A stretch of 64,000 bases of DNA from Desulfonatronospira thiodismutans ASO3-1 (GTDB lineage: Bacteria > Desulfobacterota > Desulfovibrionia > Desulfovibrionales > Desulfonatronovibrionaceae), in the NCBI RefSeq assembly GCF_000174435.1, contig NZ_ACJN02000001.1:981658-1045657 (forward strand), written 5' to 3'. Below, one piece after another: positions 21,253 through 25,952 of this stretch. A program made the position numbers and the translations under genes. A model generated the notes under the pieces. That model had not been told where the DNA came from. It saw only the letters and a list, made by a program, of their open reading frames with translations, and did not search any database. The number at the start of each line of letters is the position of its first letter. The first letter of the stretch is position 1.

Positions 21253-21672
21253 ATGAGCGAGGAGGCAAAGGCCACAGGTAAGTTCTGGACTCTGGTCTGG
21301 TCCAACAGGCAGAAGGGCAGCTATCTTCTGTCGAATTACGAAACAACGCATATTAAAAGCCTACCGAACGGCTGGCTTTTAAGGCACAGGTTCATGGGAG
21401 GGAAATATTTTACCCGGTCCAGCATAATTTTCGTCCCTGATCCTGCACATACCTGGGAAGCTGATCATATCGAGGTGCAATGGGAACGGATCTACAGCAG
21501 AAAGACACCAAATCATGTTGAATATACCAACAGGCTAAAAACCCCGCAGGGTTGGGTCATTAAAGAGTTTTTCAGCACCAAGCGGTCTGCTTCAAAGGAA
21601 GGCACTACATGCCTTAGTCTGACTTATTTTGAGGACAAAGATCACCAATGGGTAGGGGTGCGGCTCTTTTGA
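21253..21672 (+). CDS. Hypothetical 139-aa protein, 3' end altered by IS insertion
   Basis: This small beta-rich protein has several Trp residues (FWTLVWSNRQKGSYLLSNYE; MGGKYFTRSSIIFVP); I do not recognise the family. It starts behind GGGAGGGG, 38 bases after the AAA+ gene, so the two form an operon. The ISKra4-type element inserted at 21656. Joining the two flanks gives ... DHQWVV followed by a stop, so the native protein was probably 135 residues and now ends in WVGVRLF encoded by the IS end. Function may well be preserved. Confidence 0.75.
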   Translation: MSEEAKATGKFWTLVWSNRQKGSYLLSNYETTHIKSLPNGWLLRHRFMGGKYFTRSSIIFVPDPAHTWEADHIEVQWERIYSRKTPNHVEYTNRLKTPQGWVIKEFFSTKRSASKEGTTCLSLTYFEDKDHQWVGVRLF

Positions 21673-21857
21673 AACTCACAAAAGATAAGTAATTTTAGCA
21701 GGTTAGCAAGGTAAACATCGAGATTTTTCTTGATTTTGTCTACATATGCATTTCGTGTGCTGATATGTGACCAATTTTGCTCATCAGTTTCCAGCTTTTT
21801 CAGCAAGAAGATTTTTTTCTCGTTTTCATTAAAAAAATGCTGGACATCCTCATGCTT

Positions 21858-21884
21858 CCTTGTTATCTTAAAATAGCAAGGAGG
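21858..21884 (+). promoter_or_regulatory. Hairpin masking the ribosome site of the IS operon
   Basis: CCTTGTTAT (21858-21866) pairs with ATAGCAAGG (21873-21881), a 9-bp stem with a six-base loop. Its 3' arm contains the start of AAGGAGG, the ribosome site of the DruA gene. Insertion sequences often hide the start in this way to prevent expression by read-through from outside promoters. Confidence 0.55.
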
Positions 21885-21889
21885 CAGTC

Positions 21890-22789
21890 ATGGTCCAAGA
21901 AATTTCTCAAAAGTTTTGTGGCAGGGAATTTACATCCGAAGAAGTAAGGCTTGTTCAGGAGGTTGTAAGGAACTGTGCGGGACTCAGTCGTACTGAATTG
22001 TCCCATACGGTCAGTGAGTTGCTGGAATGGAAGCGGCCTGGGGGCGGGCTTAAGGCCAGAGAGTGCATGGATTTTCTGGAGCAGTTGGCGGTTCATGAAA
22101 TTATCGATCTTCCAGGTAAAAAGTCATCAGGGAAAGCTAAACCCAGGAAAAGCATCGCTGCTGTCCAGGACAGCCGTCCTTATAGTCATCTGTGCGGTAG
22201 TGTAGAGGAATTTACTCCGCTGGATGTTGAGCTGGTTGAAAACCGGGAACAACGGTTGTTGTTTCAGGACCTGCTCAGCAGGTACCATTATCTTGGTTAT
22301 GCCATGCCTTACGGCGCACGCTTGCAATATTTGATACATACAGGCCGACCCCGCAGGGAAGTGGTTGCCTGCGTGCAGTTTTCCAGTCCGGCCTGGCGAA
22401 TAAAGGCCCGAGATCAGTGGATCGGTTGGGATGACGGCACACGTTCGAAGCGCTTGCAGCATGTGGTCAACAACAGCCGGTTGTTGATCCTGGCCAGGAT
22501 AAAAAATCTGGCGAGCATGGCGTTGTCCAGGGCGTTGCAGCATCTTGGTGTGGACTGGCTTGAACGTTATGGGGTTGAGCCATTGCTGGTGGAGACTCTT
22601 GTAGACAGGCAGCGTTTTCATGGGGGCTGCTATCTGGCTTCCAACTGGAAATTGCTTGGTGATACCAGTGGCCGGGGGCGTACGGATCGAGCTCACAAGC
22701 GTCATGGCTCAGAAGTTAAAAAGGTGCTGGTCCTTCCCCTGGTCAAGAACGCTGTAACCAGACTGTCAGGGAAAGGAGGCCGGCCATGA
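21890..22789 (+). CDS. DruA-family protein (DUF4338) carried by the IS
   Basis: The 299-residue protein matches the DUF4338/DruA layout: HYLGYAMPYGARLQYLI, VVACVQFSSPAWRIKARDQW-IGW, RLQHVVNNSRLLIL and ETLVDRQRFHGGCYLASNWK. DruA names the signature protein of the Druantia phage-defence systems, but here it lies inside an insertion sequence and overlaps the transposase start (ATGA). No DruE helicase or other Druantia gene is nearby, so it is better seen as a transposition accessory or passenger. Its molecular activity is not known. Confidence 0.88.
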   Translation: MVQEISQKFCGREFTSEEVRLVQEVVRNCAGLSRTELSHTVSELLEWKRPGGGLKARECMDFLEQLAVHEIIDLPGKKSSGKAKPRKSIAAVQDSRPYSHLCGSVEEFTPLDVELVENREQRLLFQDLLSRYHYLGYAMPYGARLQYLIHTGRPRREVVACVQFSSPAWRIKARDQWIGWDDGTRSKRLQHVVNNSRLLILARIKNLASMALSRALQHLGVDWLERYGVEPLLVETLVDRQRFHGGCYLASNWKLLGDTSGRGRTDRAHKRHGSEVKKVLVLPLVKNAVTRLSGKGGRP

Positions 22790-24362
22790 TGCAGGCAGCC
22801 GAGGCATTGCCTGCCCTTCATGCCGGGCAGGGGGCATATGGAGAGTCCAGGCAATGTTTTGAAAACCATCTTGTGAGCTTTATTGACTCATCCGAGGCAC
22901 ATACTATGACCCATAGTGAACTGGAGCGGGAACTGGAGAAAAGGGGCCGTGAGTTGATGCGCCAACTTCTGCAGGATCATCTGGACACGCGTCGTCCCGG
23001 CGAGACTGCTGGTCCGGTAGTGGACAGTGATTCAGAGCAACGCAACAATATCCGGAACCATGATCGTAGCATTAAGACTGTCTTTGGAACGCTCACGATA
23101 GAGAGGGCTGGATACGGCCAGGAAGGCAAGAACAGCCTGCACCCACTGGATGCGGAGCTCAATATTCCAAAAGAGCTGTATTCTTTGGAGCTTCGCAAAC
23201 GCGTGGCCCGGGAGGCTGCAAAGAGTTCTTTCGATGACACCCTGGAGCATATTCTGGAGGTTACAGGGGTAAATATCCCCAAACGTCAGGCGGAAGAACT
23301 GGCAGCGCGGGCTGCAAGGGACTTTGATGCCTTTTACGATACCAGACGCATTGATGGTTCCCGTGAAGAGACACCAGGCTCTTTGTTGGTACTCACTGTA
23401 GACGGCAAGGGTGTGGTCATGCTTGAGAGGGATTTACGGGAAACTACCCGCAAGGCTGCCCAGCAATCCAGGCATAAGAAGAAATCCAGGCTGTCTCAGG
23501 GAGAGAAAAAGAACTCCAAACGCATGGCCACTGTTGCCTCTGTATATACTATTGAGCCGCATATAAGGACCCCCGAAGACATTGCCCTGGGAACAAAAGA
23601 GCATGCCCGCGATGGCCCTAAACCTCCCAGGCCGGAAAACAAGCGCATCTGGGCCAGTCTGAAGAAAGAACCGGAAGAGGTCATTGAGGAGTTATTCCAG
23701 GAAGCCTTTTCCCGTGACCCGGATCAGAAAAAAACATGGGTGGCCTTAGTCGACGGCAACAAGACCCAGATCAAGCAGTTACGCAAGCAGGCCAAAAAAA
23801 GAACTACAACCTGCATATCATCCTGGATATTTACCATGTCAGTGAGTATTTGTGGAAAGCTGGCAAGGCCTTTCATCCTGAATCAGGTTCAAAACAGGAG
23901 GCTTGGGTTGGGCAACGTCTTTTGGAAGTCCTTCGCGGTAAGGCCGGATACGTTGCAGGGGGGATTCGCCGTAGCGCTACCTTGCAGAAACTGAGTTCAA
24001 AGTCCCGTATCCCAATAGATAAATGCGCAGATTACCTGCTCAATAACAAAGCCTACCTCCGATACGACCGGTATCTTTGCCTCGGTCTGCCTGCTGCAAC
24101 CGGAGTCATCGAAGGGGCCTGTAAGCATCTGGTCAAGAAAAGGATGGAAGACACCGGTGCACGCTGGAGTCTGGAAGGCGCAGAAGCAGTTCTGAAGCTT
24201 CGCGCCCTGCGTTGCAGCCATGACTTTGACGAATACTGGGAGTTTCATGAAAAATGCGAGTATAAGCGCAACCATGAAAGTCTGTACAAAAACGGCATCG
24301 TGCCAAAGACCATCTCAACCCGGCATCCTCGCAAGAATGGTCGCCTGAATAAAATCAAATAA
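22786..24362 (+). CDS. ISKra4-family transposase, two frames joined by a -1 shift
   Basis: The first frame (22786-23994) contains RSIKTVFGTLTIERAGYGQ, then a DDE-type catalytic region with VLTVDGKGVVM. Near 23794-23800 a run of seven A followed by G occurs. The -1 frame there continues KNYNLHIILDIYHVSEYLWK with the second Asp, and later GVIEGACKHLVKKRMEDTGA with the catalytic Glu, ending at 24362. The product is thus about 525 residues only if ribosomes or polymerase slip on the A run. A -1 shift is known in part of this family; a simple mutation is the alternative. Confidence 0.88.
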
Positions 24363-24494
24363 CCAACAAGCCGGATTTTAAAATCCGTAAAAATCAGTCA
24401 CGGGGAAGTTTAAACTTGGCTGTCGAAAAAGAGCCGCACCCAATGGGTAGTCTGATATTTTTCTCGGAAAGCACCTTGCCTGCATCTTAAACAA

Positions 24495-25952
24495 TCAACG
24501 GCCCAGCTTTTCTACTATTTTGACCAGAGCCAAGGTGTCCATCTCACAATAGGCAGCCAGTCCTTTTCGAATCTCCTCTATACGTTCCGGTGTGGTATCA
24601 GGGTGAATGGCTTCGGCATAGGCCTCCTGGGCCTGGCCCCCATCCTGGATTCCTGGCAAAACGGTGTAATCCAGTTCAGGGGCGATACATGGCAGAACAG
24701 CTTTTAAAGACCAACTCCCACGCATTTCCGGGTGATAGTAACACTGTCTGATAATTGGGAGCAGGTCCACGATCCGATCCGACAAAGCCTGAAGAGAATG
24801 GGCCAGATCAGGCATATGCTGGATCAATCCATGTAGGACTGTTTTTTCAAAACTTCCGTATACAAATATTGGCCCAAGCTCCTGACAAGAAGACACTAAG
24901 GACTCTGCAAAGTCGCGCATGGGCGGTTCACCGGAAAGATCGAGAAATTCCATGTGCCGCAGATTGTCAGGTCTGTCCTGAACATGACACGACCATTGGA
25001 ATGGCAACTGCTGATATGGCCTTGTCCCTTTCCAGACAGGGACAGCAAATTGAGCGGTCTCGAAGTCAAGAAAATATCTTGGATAAGAAAATTTTTCATG
25101 ACTGCAGTCCGCTTCCAGCAAAAGCTCTTCCTCGCCAGACTGAGTTACCCTGCGGACCCTTTCTTGAGTGGGATTCGCCAGCCTTCCATCGGGGATATCC
25201 CGGATGTCCTCGAAACCTTCCTGTTTGAGGTCTTGAAGCAACTGGCTCTTTATACGCGGCAGACATTCCAGGGGATATGCAGGTCTGTCGGCAGGCAGGC
25301 AAAACTCCATGAACGGGCATTCAAAAGGAGAACGGCAATGCTCTCCCATCTCTATGTCCGGGGTTGACCCCTGCAGAGTTTTTAAAAACTGTCGGACCCA
25401 GTCTTCAACCTGGGTCCGCATTTCAAAGGCTGTCTTTGTCACATTTTCAGTTTTGAGAAGCCCCTGGTAATCCCCTTTTCCTGGATAGACAAAAGAAGAG
25501 TCTATAACCGCCACCTCTATATTCTGTACAGGACGGCCTGCCCCCTGCATAACCCAGGCTTGAACAGCACAGTCCCAGATATGGTAATCCTTGACACTGG
25601 TGGACGACTTGACCTCGATTACCTTGAGCCCTGTTCCAGTCGGTACAACTATATCTGAACGAATCAGAACCTGGTCATGTACAAACGTGGCTTCATAAAT
25701 GGGCAGGTCAGAGAAATCAAGATGGTCTCGGGTAAGCTTCAATGCATGTCCAAAGCCGTTTTCCAGCCCCACATACACCCCGCCAGGAGCCAGATATTGG
25801 CAGGCGATTTCACCGACCTTATGGCCTGTTTGCATCCTGGCCAAGGTATTTGGATCGTATTCTATCAGATCCGGGCGGTGAATCTCAAGCCAGAGCCGTT
25901 TTGGGCACTGAATTCCTGAGAGGATTTTGGATTTTGAAAGCCTGTGAGTCAT
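24495..25952 (-). CDS. DUF2779 nuclease (Cas4/AddB-like plus DEDD exonuclease)
   Basis: Two nuclease-like parts are visible in 485 residues. The N-terminal half looks like a Cas4/AddB-type Fe-S nuclease: a lone Cys at 16 (IQCPKRLWLE), an acidic VLIRSDIVV, VIEVKSST and then three Cys in HCRSPFECPFMEFC. The C-terminal half has YFLDFETAQF, a FVYGSFEKTVL block and AYCEMDTLALV, the acidic pattern of DnaQ-type exonucleases (DUF2779). It may process DNA in repair or defence. The first 33 residues are duplicated as a stub at 63472. The ISKra4 element lies just past its 3' end. Confidence 0.85.
   Translation of the reverse strand: MTHRLSKSKILSGIQCPKRLWLEIHRPDLIEYDPNTLARMQTGHKVGEIACQYLAPGGVYVGLENGFGHALKLTRDHLDFSDLPIYEATFVHDQVLIRSDIVVPTGTGLKVIEVKSSTSVKDYHIWDCAVQAWVMQGAGRPVQNIEVAVIDSSFVYPGKGDYQGLLKTENVTKTAFEMRTQVEDWVRQFLKTLQGSTPDIEMGEHCRSPFECPFMEFCLPADRPAYPLECLPRIKSQLLQDLKQEGFEDIRDIPDGRLANPTQERVRRVTQSGEEELLLEADCSHEKFSYPRYFLDFETAQFAVPVWKGTRPYQQLPFQWSCHVQDRPDNLRHMEFLDLSGEPPMRDFAESLVSSCQELGPIFVYGSFEKTVLHGLIQHMPDLAHSLQALSDRIVDLLPIIRQCYYHPEMRGSWSLKAVLPCIAPELDYTVLPGIQDGGQAQEAYAEAIHPDTTPERIEEIRKGLAAYCEMDTLALVKIVEKLGR

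What the first reader, a model, noticed from the sequence alone, without database searches (positions are those of the whole stretch)
21647..24450. DruA (DUF4338) carried as a passenger gene of an ISKra4-type element
Seen: exact 9-bp duplication AATGGGTAG and inverted GGGTGCGGCTCTTTT ends enclose both a DUF4338 gene and the transposase; the two genes overlap by ATGA. Known: DruA is the hallmark of Druantia anti-phage systems. Inference: a transposon-borne DruA may act in transposition, and Druantia may have taken it from such an element, or the IS may carry a defence gene.
Basis: partly seen in the sequence, partly recalled or inferred. Interest (0 to 1): 0.75.

Follow-up and report, generated by a model that had tools for sequence, protein, structure and literature searches.

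The report
Jumping genes carrying a DNA-modifying enzyme
A complete bacterial jumping gene carries, next to its transposase, a gene currently filed under an anti-virus system; its sequence and predicted shape instead match phage Mu's DNA-modifying enzyme Mom, and the same gene accompanies transposases of eight families, so it is probably a DNA-modifying helper of transposition rather than a stray defence gene.

Summary
An ISKra4-family element (21656-24441; exact 15-bp inverted ends, exact 9-bp duplication) encloses a DUF4338/DruA gene and a transposase overlapping by ATGA. The transposase carries a -1 frameshift; intact copies of the same two-gene element exist elsewhere.

The DruA gene belongs to the element, but "DruA passenger" undersells it. 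In a sample of three phyla, 31 of 39 DruA genes of this clade sit beside or are fused to transposases of eight IS annotations (IS66, ISAs1, IS701, IS4, IS1634, ISKra4, IS1182, an IS1380-like one), against 0 of 9 Druantia-type DruA. The two classes split with full support.

IS-linked DruA is a Mom-like GNAT protein. Phage Mu Mom is the best solved-structure match (Z 13.8). Profile comparison gives E 2e-11 (controls flat). Ten residues highly conserved in Mom, including the serine mutated in the inactive structure, map onto identical residues in almost every IS group tested. Druantia-type DruA lacks this signature.

Best explanation: a transposase-coupled enzyme that modifies DNA, probably adenine, to shield or license the moving element. 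Homology is well supported; activity and role are inferred. DruA-less relatives with near-identical ends have moved, so it is an accessory, not a requirement.

The parts
21647..21655 (.). left copy of the 9-bp target-site duplication AATGGGTAG
21656..21670 (+). left terminal inverted repeat GGGTGCGGCTCTTTT
   Evidence: the same 15-mer (0-2 mismatches) ends most related elements found
21671..21889 (+). non-coding leader between left end and DruA; one promoter-like match 21841-21869, no Rfam hit
21890..22789 (+). DruA (DUF4338) gene, 299 aa, intact
   Evidence: PF14236 E 5e-52; AlphaFold2 model mean pLDDT 83
21935..22096 (+). N-terminal three-helix, winged-helix-like domain (residues 16-69), conserved in 22 IS-linked or related DruA proteins
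   Evidence: alignment; model; fold match weak
22205..22765 (+). Mom-like GNAT domain (residues 106-292); Mom-equivalent residues H133, Y134, R197, N206, S209, D239, G245, Y248, A250, N252
22786..23994 (+). ISKra4 transposase, N-terminal frame; start overlaps the DruA stop (ATGA)
   Evidence: NF033572 184 bits
23794..23801 (+). A-rich run where the transposase frame is lost (-1); relatives have one open frame here
23736..24362 (+). ISKra4 transposase, C-terminal part in the -1 frame
   Evidence: NF033572 170 bits
24427..24441 (-). right terminal inverted repeat
24442..24450 (.). right copy of the target-site duplication
21253..21672 (+). host ORF interrupted near its 3' end by the insertion; its reading frame now runs into the left inverted repeat
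   Evidence: a 62% identical paralogue exists at G000:C1:1047908-1048309

Best explanation
The element is an ISKra4-family insertion sequence whose first gene encodes a Mom-type GNAT-fold protein (filed as DruA/DUF4338), probably co-translated with the transposase through the stop-start overlap. Proposed action: the N-terminal winged-helix-like domain and/or contact with the transposase places the Mom-like domain on the element's DNA, where it adds a small group to a base, most likely N6 of adenine as phage Mu Mom does. The mark shields the moving or newly inserted DNA from host nucleases, or licenses which ends or copies may transpose. Shown by computation: element boundaries, integral membership of DruA, recurrent coupling or fusion to transposases of several families, Mom homology with the conserved residues retained, purifying selection. 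Inferred: DNA as substrate, adenine as target, action in cis with the transposase, and the benefit (shielding or licensing).
For: Integral part: L133 and L137 carry the same IR-DruA-Tnp-IR structure with different 9-bp duplications in other genomes; L134, L135 and L143 carry DruA before the transposase. Recurrence: the host genome alone has DruA with ISKra4, with IS66 (6 copies, 5 read with their transposase), fused to an IS4/Tn5-type transposase (3) and fused to ISAs1 (4). In samples of three phyla 31 of 39 DruA of this clade are linked to transposases: IS66 15, ISAs1 5, IS701 3, IS4 3, IS1634 2, ISKra4 1, IS1182 1, IS1380-like 1 (my tally). Mom: best VIA match is phage Mu Mom 8bv8, Z 13.8 over 165 aa, 19% identity, next 12.3. 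hhalign of DruA-IS against 11 phage Mom: score 81.7, E 2e-11; 200 column shuffles at most 29.2, reversed 25.4; RimI control 12.2. Each IS group separately scores 52-82 and maps 9 or 10 of 10 Mom residues to identical ones. A Mom HMM finds IS-DruA directly, up to 37 bits. Pfam Mom matches an IS701-fused DruA at E 9e-5. Residue counts in 39 IS-linked proteins: H133 39, R197 39, S209 38, Y248 38, D239 33 (4 more E). The inactive Mom crystal mutant S124A is S114 in the 231-aa numbering, the residue aligned with DruA S209. Phage contigs encode DruA next to true Mom genes. Constraint: pN/pS of DruA 0.28-0.55, of the transposase 0.38-0.51. Spacing of 10 nt or less in most two-gene cases.
Against: No biochemistry: a GNAT fold can acylate proteins or small molecules. 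DruA-less elements with the same inverted repeats have moved (L136 with duplication TACGGAGAA; two copies in Adonisia, L138/L139), so DruA is not needed for transposition and the ends do not co-vary with it. 8 of 39 have no transposase in view. In L212-L214 and L239/L240 the IS66 transposase lies upstream of DruA, so gene order is not fixed. The N-terminal domain's DNA-binding fold is only weakly supported (best Z 5.9). The window protein has no hit to Pfam's Mom model at E 0.001.
Confidence: 0.5

Rival explanations
1. Protein-targeting regulator: DruA is a GNAT-fold enzyme or pseudo-enzyme that acylates or binds the transposase (or a host factor) and tunes transposition, with no DNA chemistry.
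For: GNAT fold; stop-start coupling and direct fusion to the transposase; accessory rather than essential.
Against: The specific residue signature is that of Mom, a DNA-modifying branch, while a protein-acetylating GNAT (RimI) gives no profile signal; phage DruA genes lie beside Mom genes.
Confidence: 0.22
2. Anti-restriction marker: DruA modifies element DNA only to protect incoming element DNA from host restriction (as Mom does for Mu) and plays no part in transposition itself.
For: Mom homology; phage DruA beside Mom; DruA-less relatives transpose.
Against: An IS rarely travels as naked DNA; N-terminal fusion to the transposase in IS4, ISAs1, IS701 and IS1634 types suggests action tied to the transposase.
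Confidence: 0.2
3. Passenger defence gene: DruA is an anti-phage gene carried for the host's benefit, as the name Druantia suggests.
For: Pfam calls the family DruA, Druantia protein.
Against: No Druantia partner; separate clade from PADLOC-type DruA; PADLOC 26 bits against 278-669; recurrent fusion to transposases.
Confidence: 0.05
4. Neutral hitchhiker captured once and copied along.
For: Some ISKra4 relatives lack it.
Against: Purifying selection like that of the transposase; association with eight IS annotations.
Confidence: 0.03

Closest known systems
ISKra4-family insertion sequences (p-MULT 4 / Mutator-like; Guerillot et al. 2014, PMC3942029)
   Same: Transposase family; terminal inverted repeats; accessory ORFs reported in four ISKra4 elements ('different genes of unknown function').
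   Different: Here the accessory gene is identified as a Mom-like DruA and shown to be shared with unrelated IS families; the transposase of this copy is frameshifted.
Phage Mu Mom and Mom family (PF25680; structure 8bv8)
   Same: GNAT fold; same conserved residues (H48, Y49, R101, N111, S114, D139, G146, Y149, A151, N153 in Mom).
   Different: Extra N-terminal winged-helix-like domain; DruA-specific R-D-x-x-I-G-W motif; encoded by IS elements with or fused to a transposase; below the Pfam Mom cut-off; no demonstrated activity.
Druantia DruA (PADLOC PDLC00001/00002)
   Same: Shared Pfam family PF14236; profile similarity (hhalign 84.9).
   Different: Druantia-type lacks the Mom residue signature, is longer, lacks the N-terminal domain, and sits with Druantia-like, NurA/HerA or other defence genes; separate clade.
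DUF4338 GNAT domain fused to DndF (PMC10853773)
   Same: That paper already assigns DUF4338 to the GNAT superfamily.
   Different: It does not mention DruA or Druantia, and its single DUF4338 passage does not concern insertion sequences.

Membership tests
ISKra4 insertion sequence | ISKra4 transposase (NF033572 above 205 bits) | tested here: inconclusive
   Two frames 184 and 170 bits, each under the cut-off because of the frameshift; intact relative L045/L073 364 bits, over the cut-off
ISKra4 insertion sequence | Terminal inverted repeats and short target duplication | tested here: met
   15-bp exact IR, 9-bp duplication; same in relatives
ISKra4 insertion sequence | Transposase active | not testable with these tools
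   Frameshift in this copy; activity needs experiment
Druantia anti-phage system | DruA model match at the level of known systems | tested here: not met
   26 bits, partial, against 278-669 for Druantia-type DruA
Druantia anti-phage system | DruE helicase and other partner genes alongside | tested here: not met
   Element holds only DruA and transposase; the large flanking genes are an AAA ATPase and a DUF2779 gene
DruA / DUF4338 (PF14236) | Pfam gathering score 27 bits | tested here: met
   177 bits
Mom family (PF25680) | Pfam gathering score 27.1 bits | tested here: not met
   No hit for the window protein at E 0.001; best IS-linked DruA 22.6 bits
Mom family (PF25680) | GNAT fold closest to Mom | tested here: met
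   Best VIA match 8bv8 Z 13.8, ahead of next 12.3
Mom family (PF25680) | Conserved residues of the family | tested here: met
   10 of 10 identical for the ISKra4 group
Mom family (PF25680) | DNA adenine modification | not testable with these tools
   Needs mass spectrometry

The most novel reading that the evidence does not exclude
Many unrelated DDE insertion sequences have recruited one Mom-like DNA-hypermodification module, coupled or fused to the transposase, forming a general class of self-modifying transposons; the defence protein DruA of Druantia would be a derived branch that lost the Mom active site.
Probability: 0.35. Interest if true: 0.9.

Novelty: new variant of a known kind. Interest (0 to 1): 0.74.

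Why it matters
If IS-linked DruA modifies DNA, base modification becomes a shared part of bacterial transposition across many IS families, comparable with Dam control of IS10/IS50 but carried by the element itself. It would give a chemical hypothesis for a domain of unknown function, explain genome annotations of 'DruA' next to transposases that are probably not defence systems, and link Mom, IS elements and Druantia in one protein family.

Tried and rejected
Sequence search of solved structures with DruA: no hit; with the profile only chance hits. Mom single sequence against the DruA profile: weak, E 0.02; family-to-family comparison was needed. Genome-contig scan with the diverse DruA alignment failed for lack of a conserved stretch, so the transposase alignment was used. 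N-terminal domain fold: Foldseek no significant match, VIA best Z 5.9, many winged-helix rows among the top but not decisive. The transposase tree could not resolve whether DruA was gained once or lost several times within the ISKra4 group. dS is mostly saturated, so only pN/pS is quoted. No true empty site was found: the same-genus relative holds only the first 57 residues of the interrupted ORF. Programmed frameshifting as in ISMich2 was considered; all intact relatives have a single frame, so mutation is likelier. Papers: DUF4338 occurs in three held papers; none of the searches found a link to insertion sequences or Mom; subscription papers, including key Mom papers, are not held. Phage records: no DruA match by tblastn, though IMG/VR contigs have a related class.

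Full report
OBSERVATION. The element is real. Exact 15-bp inverted repeats (21656-21670, 24427-24441) and an exact 9-bp duplication AATGGGTAG enclose two genes. The first, 21890-22789, is a 299-aa DUF4338/DruA protein (PF14236, 177 bits); the second starts inside its stop codon (ATGA) and is an ISKra4 transposase. The transposase is broken by a -1 shift at an A-rich run near 23794; the two reading frames together align end to end with an intact 518-aa relative (57% identity).

SAME ELEMENT ELSEWHERE. A scan of about 85,000 genomes with the transposase alignment returned 13 loci. DruA precedes the transposase in L133 (Desulfobacterales), L134 (Desulfobacteraceae), L135 (Acidobacteria, contig edge), L137 (Methylomirabilota) and L143 (Desulfobacterales, transposase internally deleted). 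L133 and L137 have complete ends with their own 9-bp duplications, AAAAGAATC and AATTCAGGA. In L133 (the same contig as L073) the element is inserted at the 5' side of an IS66-type element that has its own DruA. Relatives L136 (two copies), L138/L139 (identical pair, cyanobacterium Adonisia), L140 and L141 (Streptomyces) carry the same inverted repeat (0-2 mismatches) without DruA. The accessory gene is therefore characteristic of one part of the group, not required by it.

DRUA IS A RECURRENT TRANSPOSASE PARTNER. The host genome alone has 16 DruA matches: the window copy and a decayed relative; six copies of an IS66-linked type (five read with their transposase, most with stop-start overlap); three fused to an IS4/Tn5-type transposase; four fused to an ISAs1 transposase whose frame is split. 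Samples of 148 genomes of the same phylum and of 149, 146 and 198 genomes of three other phyla, with neighbourhoods read from the DNA, gave 39 DruA genes of the IS type outside the host genome, in three of the four phyla; 31 are next to or fused with a transposase. Annotations: IS66 15, ISAs1 5, IS701 3, IS4 3, IS1634 2, ISKra4 1, IS1182 1, IS1380-like 1. The tally is mine; small fragments and the genome chosen for its transposase were left out. Nine Druantia-type DruA in the same samples have no transposase partner. About ten of the 31 are single-polypeptide fusions with DruA at the N terminus. Order-level relatives show the same pattern.

TREE. On the GNAT core, 89 sequences split with SH-aLRT 100 into Druantia-type plus a 400-aa phage class, and IS-linked plus a 240-aa phage class (one phage row falls with the Druantia type). 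The window protein lies in a six-member clade of ISKra4-linked DruA (99). The tree is a quick one with long branches at the deep split. PADLOC DruA models give 278-669 bits for the best model on each Druantia-type protein tested and 26 for the window protein.

FOLD AND FAMILY. An AlphaFold2 model from 11 homologues (mean pLDDT 83) shows a three-helix N-terminal domain and a GNAT domain at residues 106-292. Foldseek finds GNAT enzymes; VIA-align ranks phage Mu Mom first, Z 13.8, 165 residues, 19% identity, ahead of 12.3. Mom was then tested as a family. Eleven phage Mom sequences against DruA-IS: hhalign score 81.7, E 2e-11 (the E-value is for one comparison). Two hundred column-shuffled Mom alignments reach at most 29.2, the reversed one 25.4. 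RimI, an ordinary protein acetyltransferase, scores 12.2 with DruA-IS and 16.7 with Mom; Druantia-type DruA scores 20.9 with Mom but 84.9 with DruA-IS. Split by IS family, every group separately scores 52-82 with Mom and carries identical residues at nine or ten of ten highly conserved Mom positions. A Mom HMM scores IS-DruA up to 37 bits and lists no Druantia-type protein.

RESIDUES. Mom H48, Y49, R101, N111, S114, D139, G146, Y149, A151, N153 (231-aa numbering) correspond to window H133, Y134, R197, N206, S209, D239, G245, Y248, A250, N252. In 39 IS-linked proteins H133 and R197 are invariant, S209 and Y248 38 of 39, D239 33 D and 4 E. The PDB title names S124A as an inactive Mom mutant; the 10-residue N-terminal extension makes this S114 here, the partner of S209. 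That the other positions are catalytic in Mom is recalled from the literature and was not checked, as those papers are not held.

SUPPORT FROM PHAGES. The 240-aa phage DruA class shares the Mom profile signal. In contigs L111, L112, L113/L115 and L118/L119 one or two true Mom genes lie beside it (PHROG 'Mom-like DNA modification protein', E 7e-45), often followed by a 400-aa DruA.

CONSTRAINT. DruA pairs of the ISKra4 clade have pN/pS 0.28-0.55, transposase pairs 0.38-0.51, IS66-linked DruA pairs 0.31-0.39: the gene is kept functional.

MECHANISM. Most likely a Mom-type base modifier tied to the transposase by coupling or fusion, marking the element's own DNA to shield or license transposition. 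Homology and linkage are shown; DNA substrate, adenine target and benefit are inferred. The near-identical ends of DruA-bearing and DruA-less relatives argue against a mark that the ends absolutely require.

NOVELTY. ISKra4 elements with extra genes are known (PMC3942029), and DUF4338 has been called a GNAT domain (PMC10853773). No paper found in the held library connects DUF4338/DruA with insertion sequences as a component, or with Mom. Pfam, ISfinder or papers not held may contain parts of this.

Noticed in passing
L073/L133 1-5493: A DruA-ISKra4 element is inserted at the 5' side of an IS66-type element that has its own DruA gene: two different IS-linked DruA nested in 5.5 kb.
   Followed up: partly
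L112:4950-8880, L118:5010-10543, L111:2579-10165 (IMG/VR contigs): Phage clusters of a short DruA, one or two true Mom genes and often a 400-aa DruA, suggesting multi-enzyme DNA modification.
   Followed up: partly
L071:4177-8282, L189:6726-10855, L209:6773-10816, L211:5735-10057: Druantia-type DruA sits with a NurA-like gene and a HerA-like ATPase rather than with Druantia genes: a recurrent DruA-NurA-HerA module, possibly a separate defence system.
   Followed up: partly
L072:7624-11888: Druantia-type DruA overlapping a 1043-aa gene with sacsin-like and NOV C-terminal domains that matches PADLOC TmtA models.
   Followed up: no
L009:4216-5644 (host genome contig C5): Decayed relative of the window element with internal deletions; the transposase C-terminal part is still 95% identical.
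   Followed up: partly
L212, L213, L214 (fourth phylum sample); L239, L240: IS66-type elements in which DruA follows the transposase instead of preceding it.
   Followed up: no
L138 and L139 (Adonisia turfae): Two identical DruA-less ISKra4 copies; the sequence ATCTCCATA lies left of one and right of the other, suggesting recombination between copies.
   Followed up: no
window 21253-21672 and 24495-25952: The interrupted ORF has a 62% paralogue about 45 kb away in the host genome; the gene right of the element is a DUF2779 protein.
   Followed up: no
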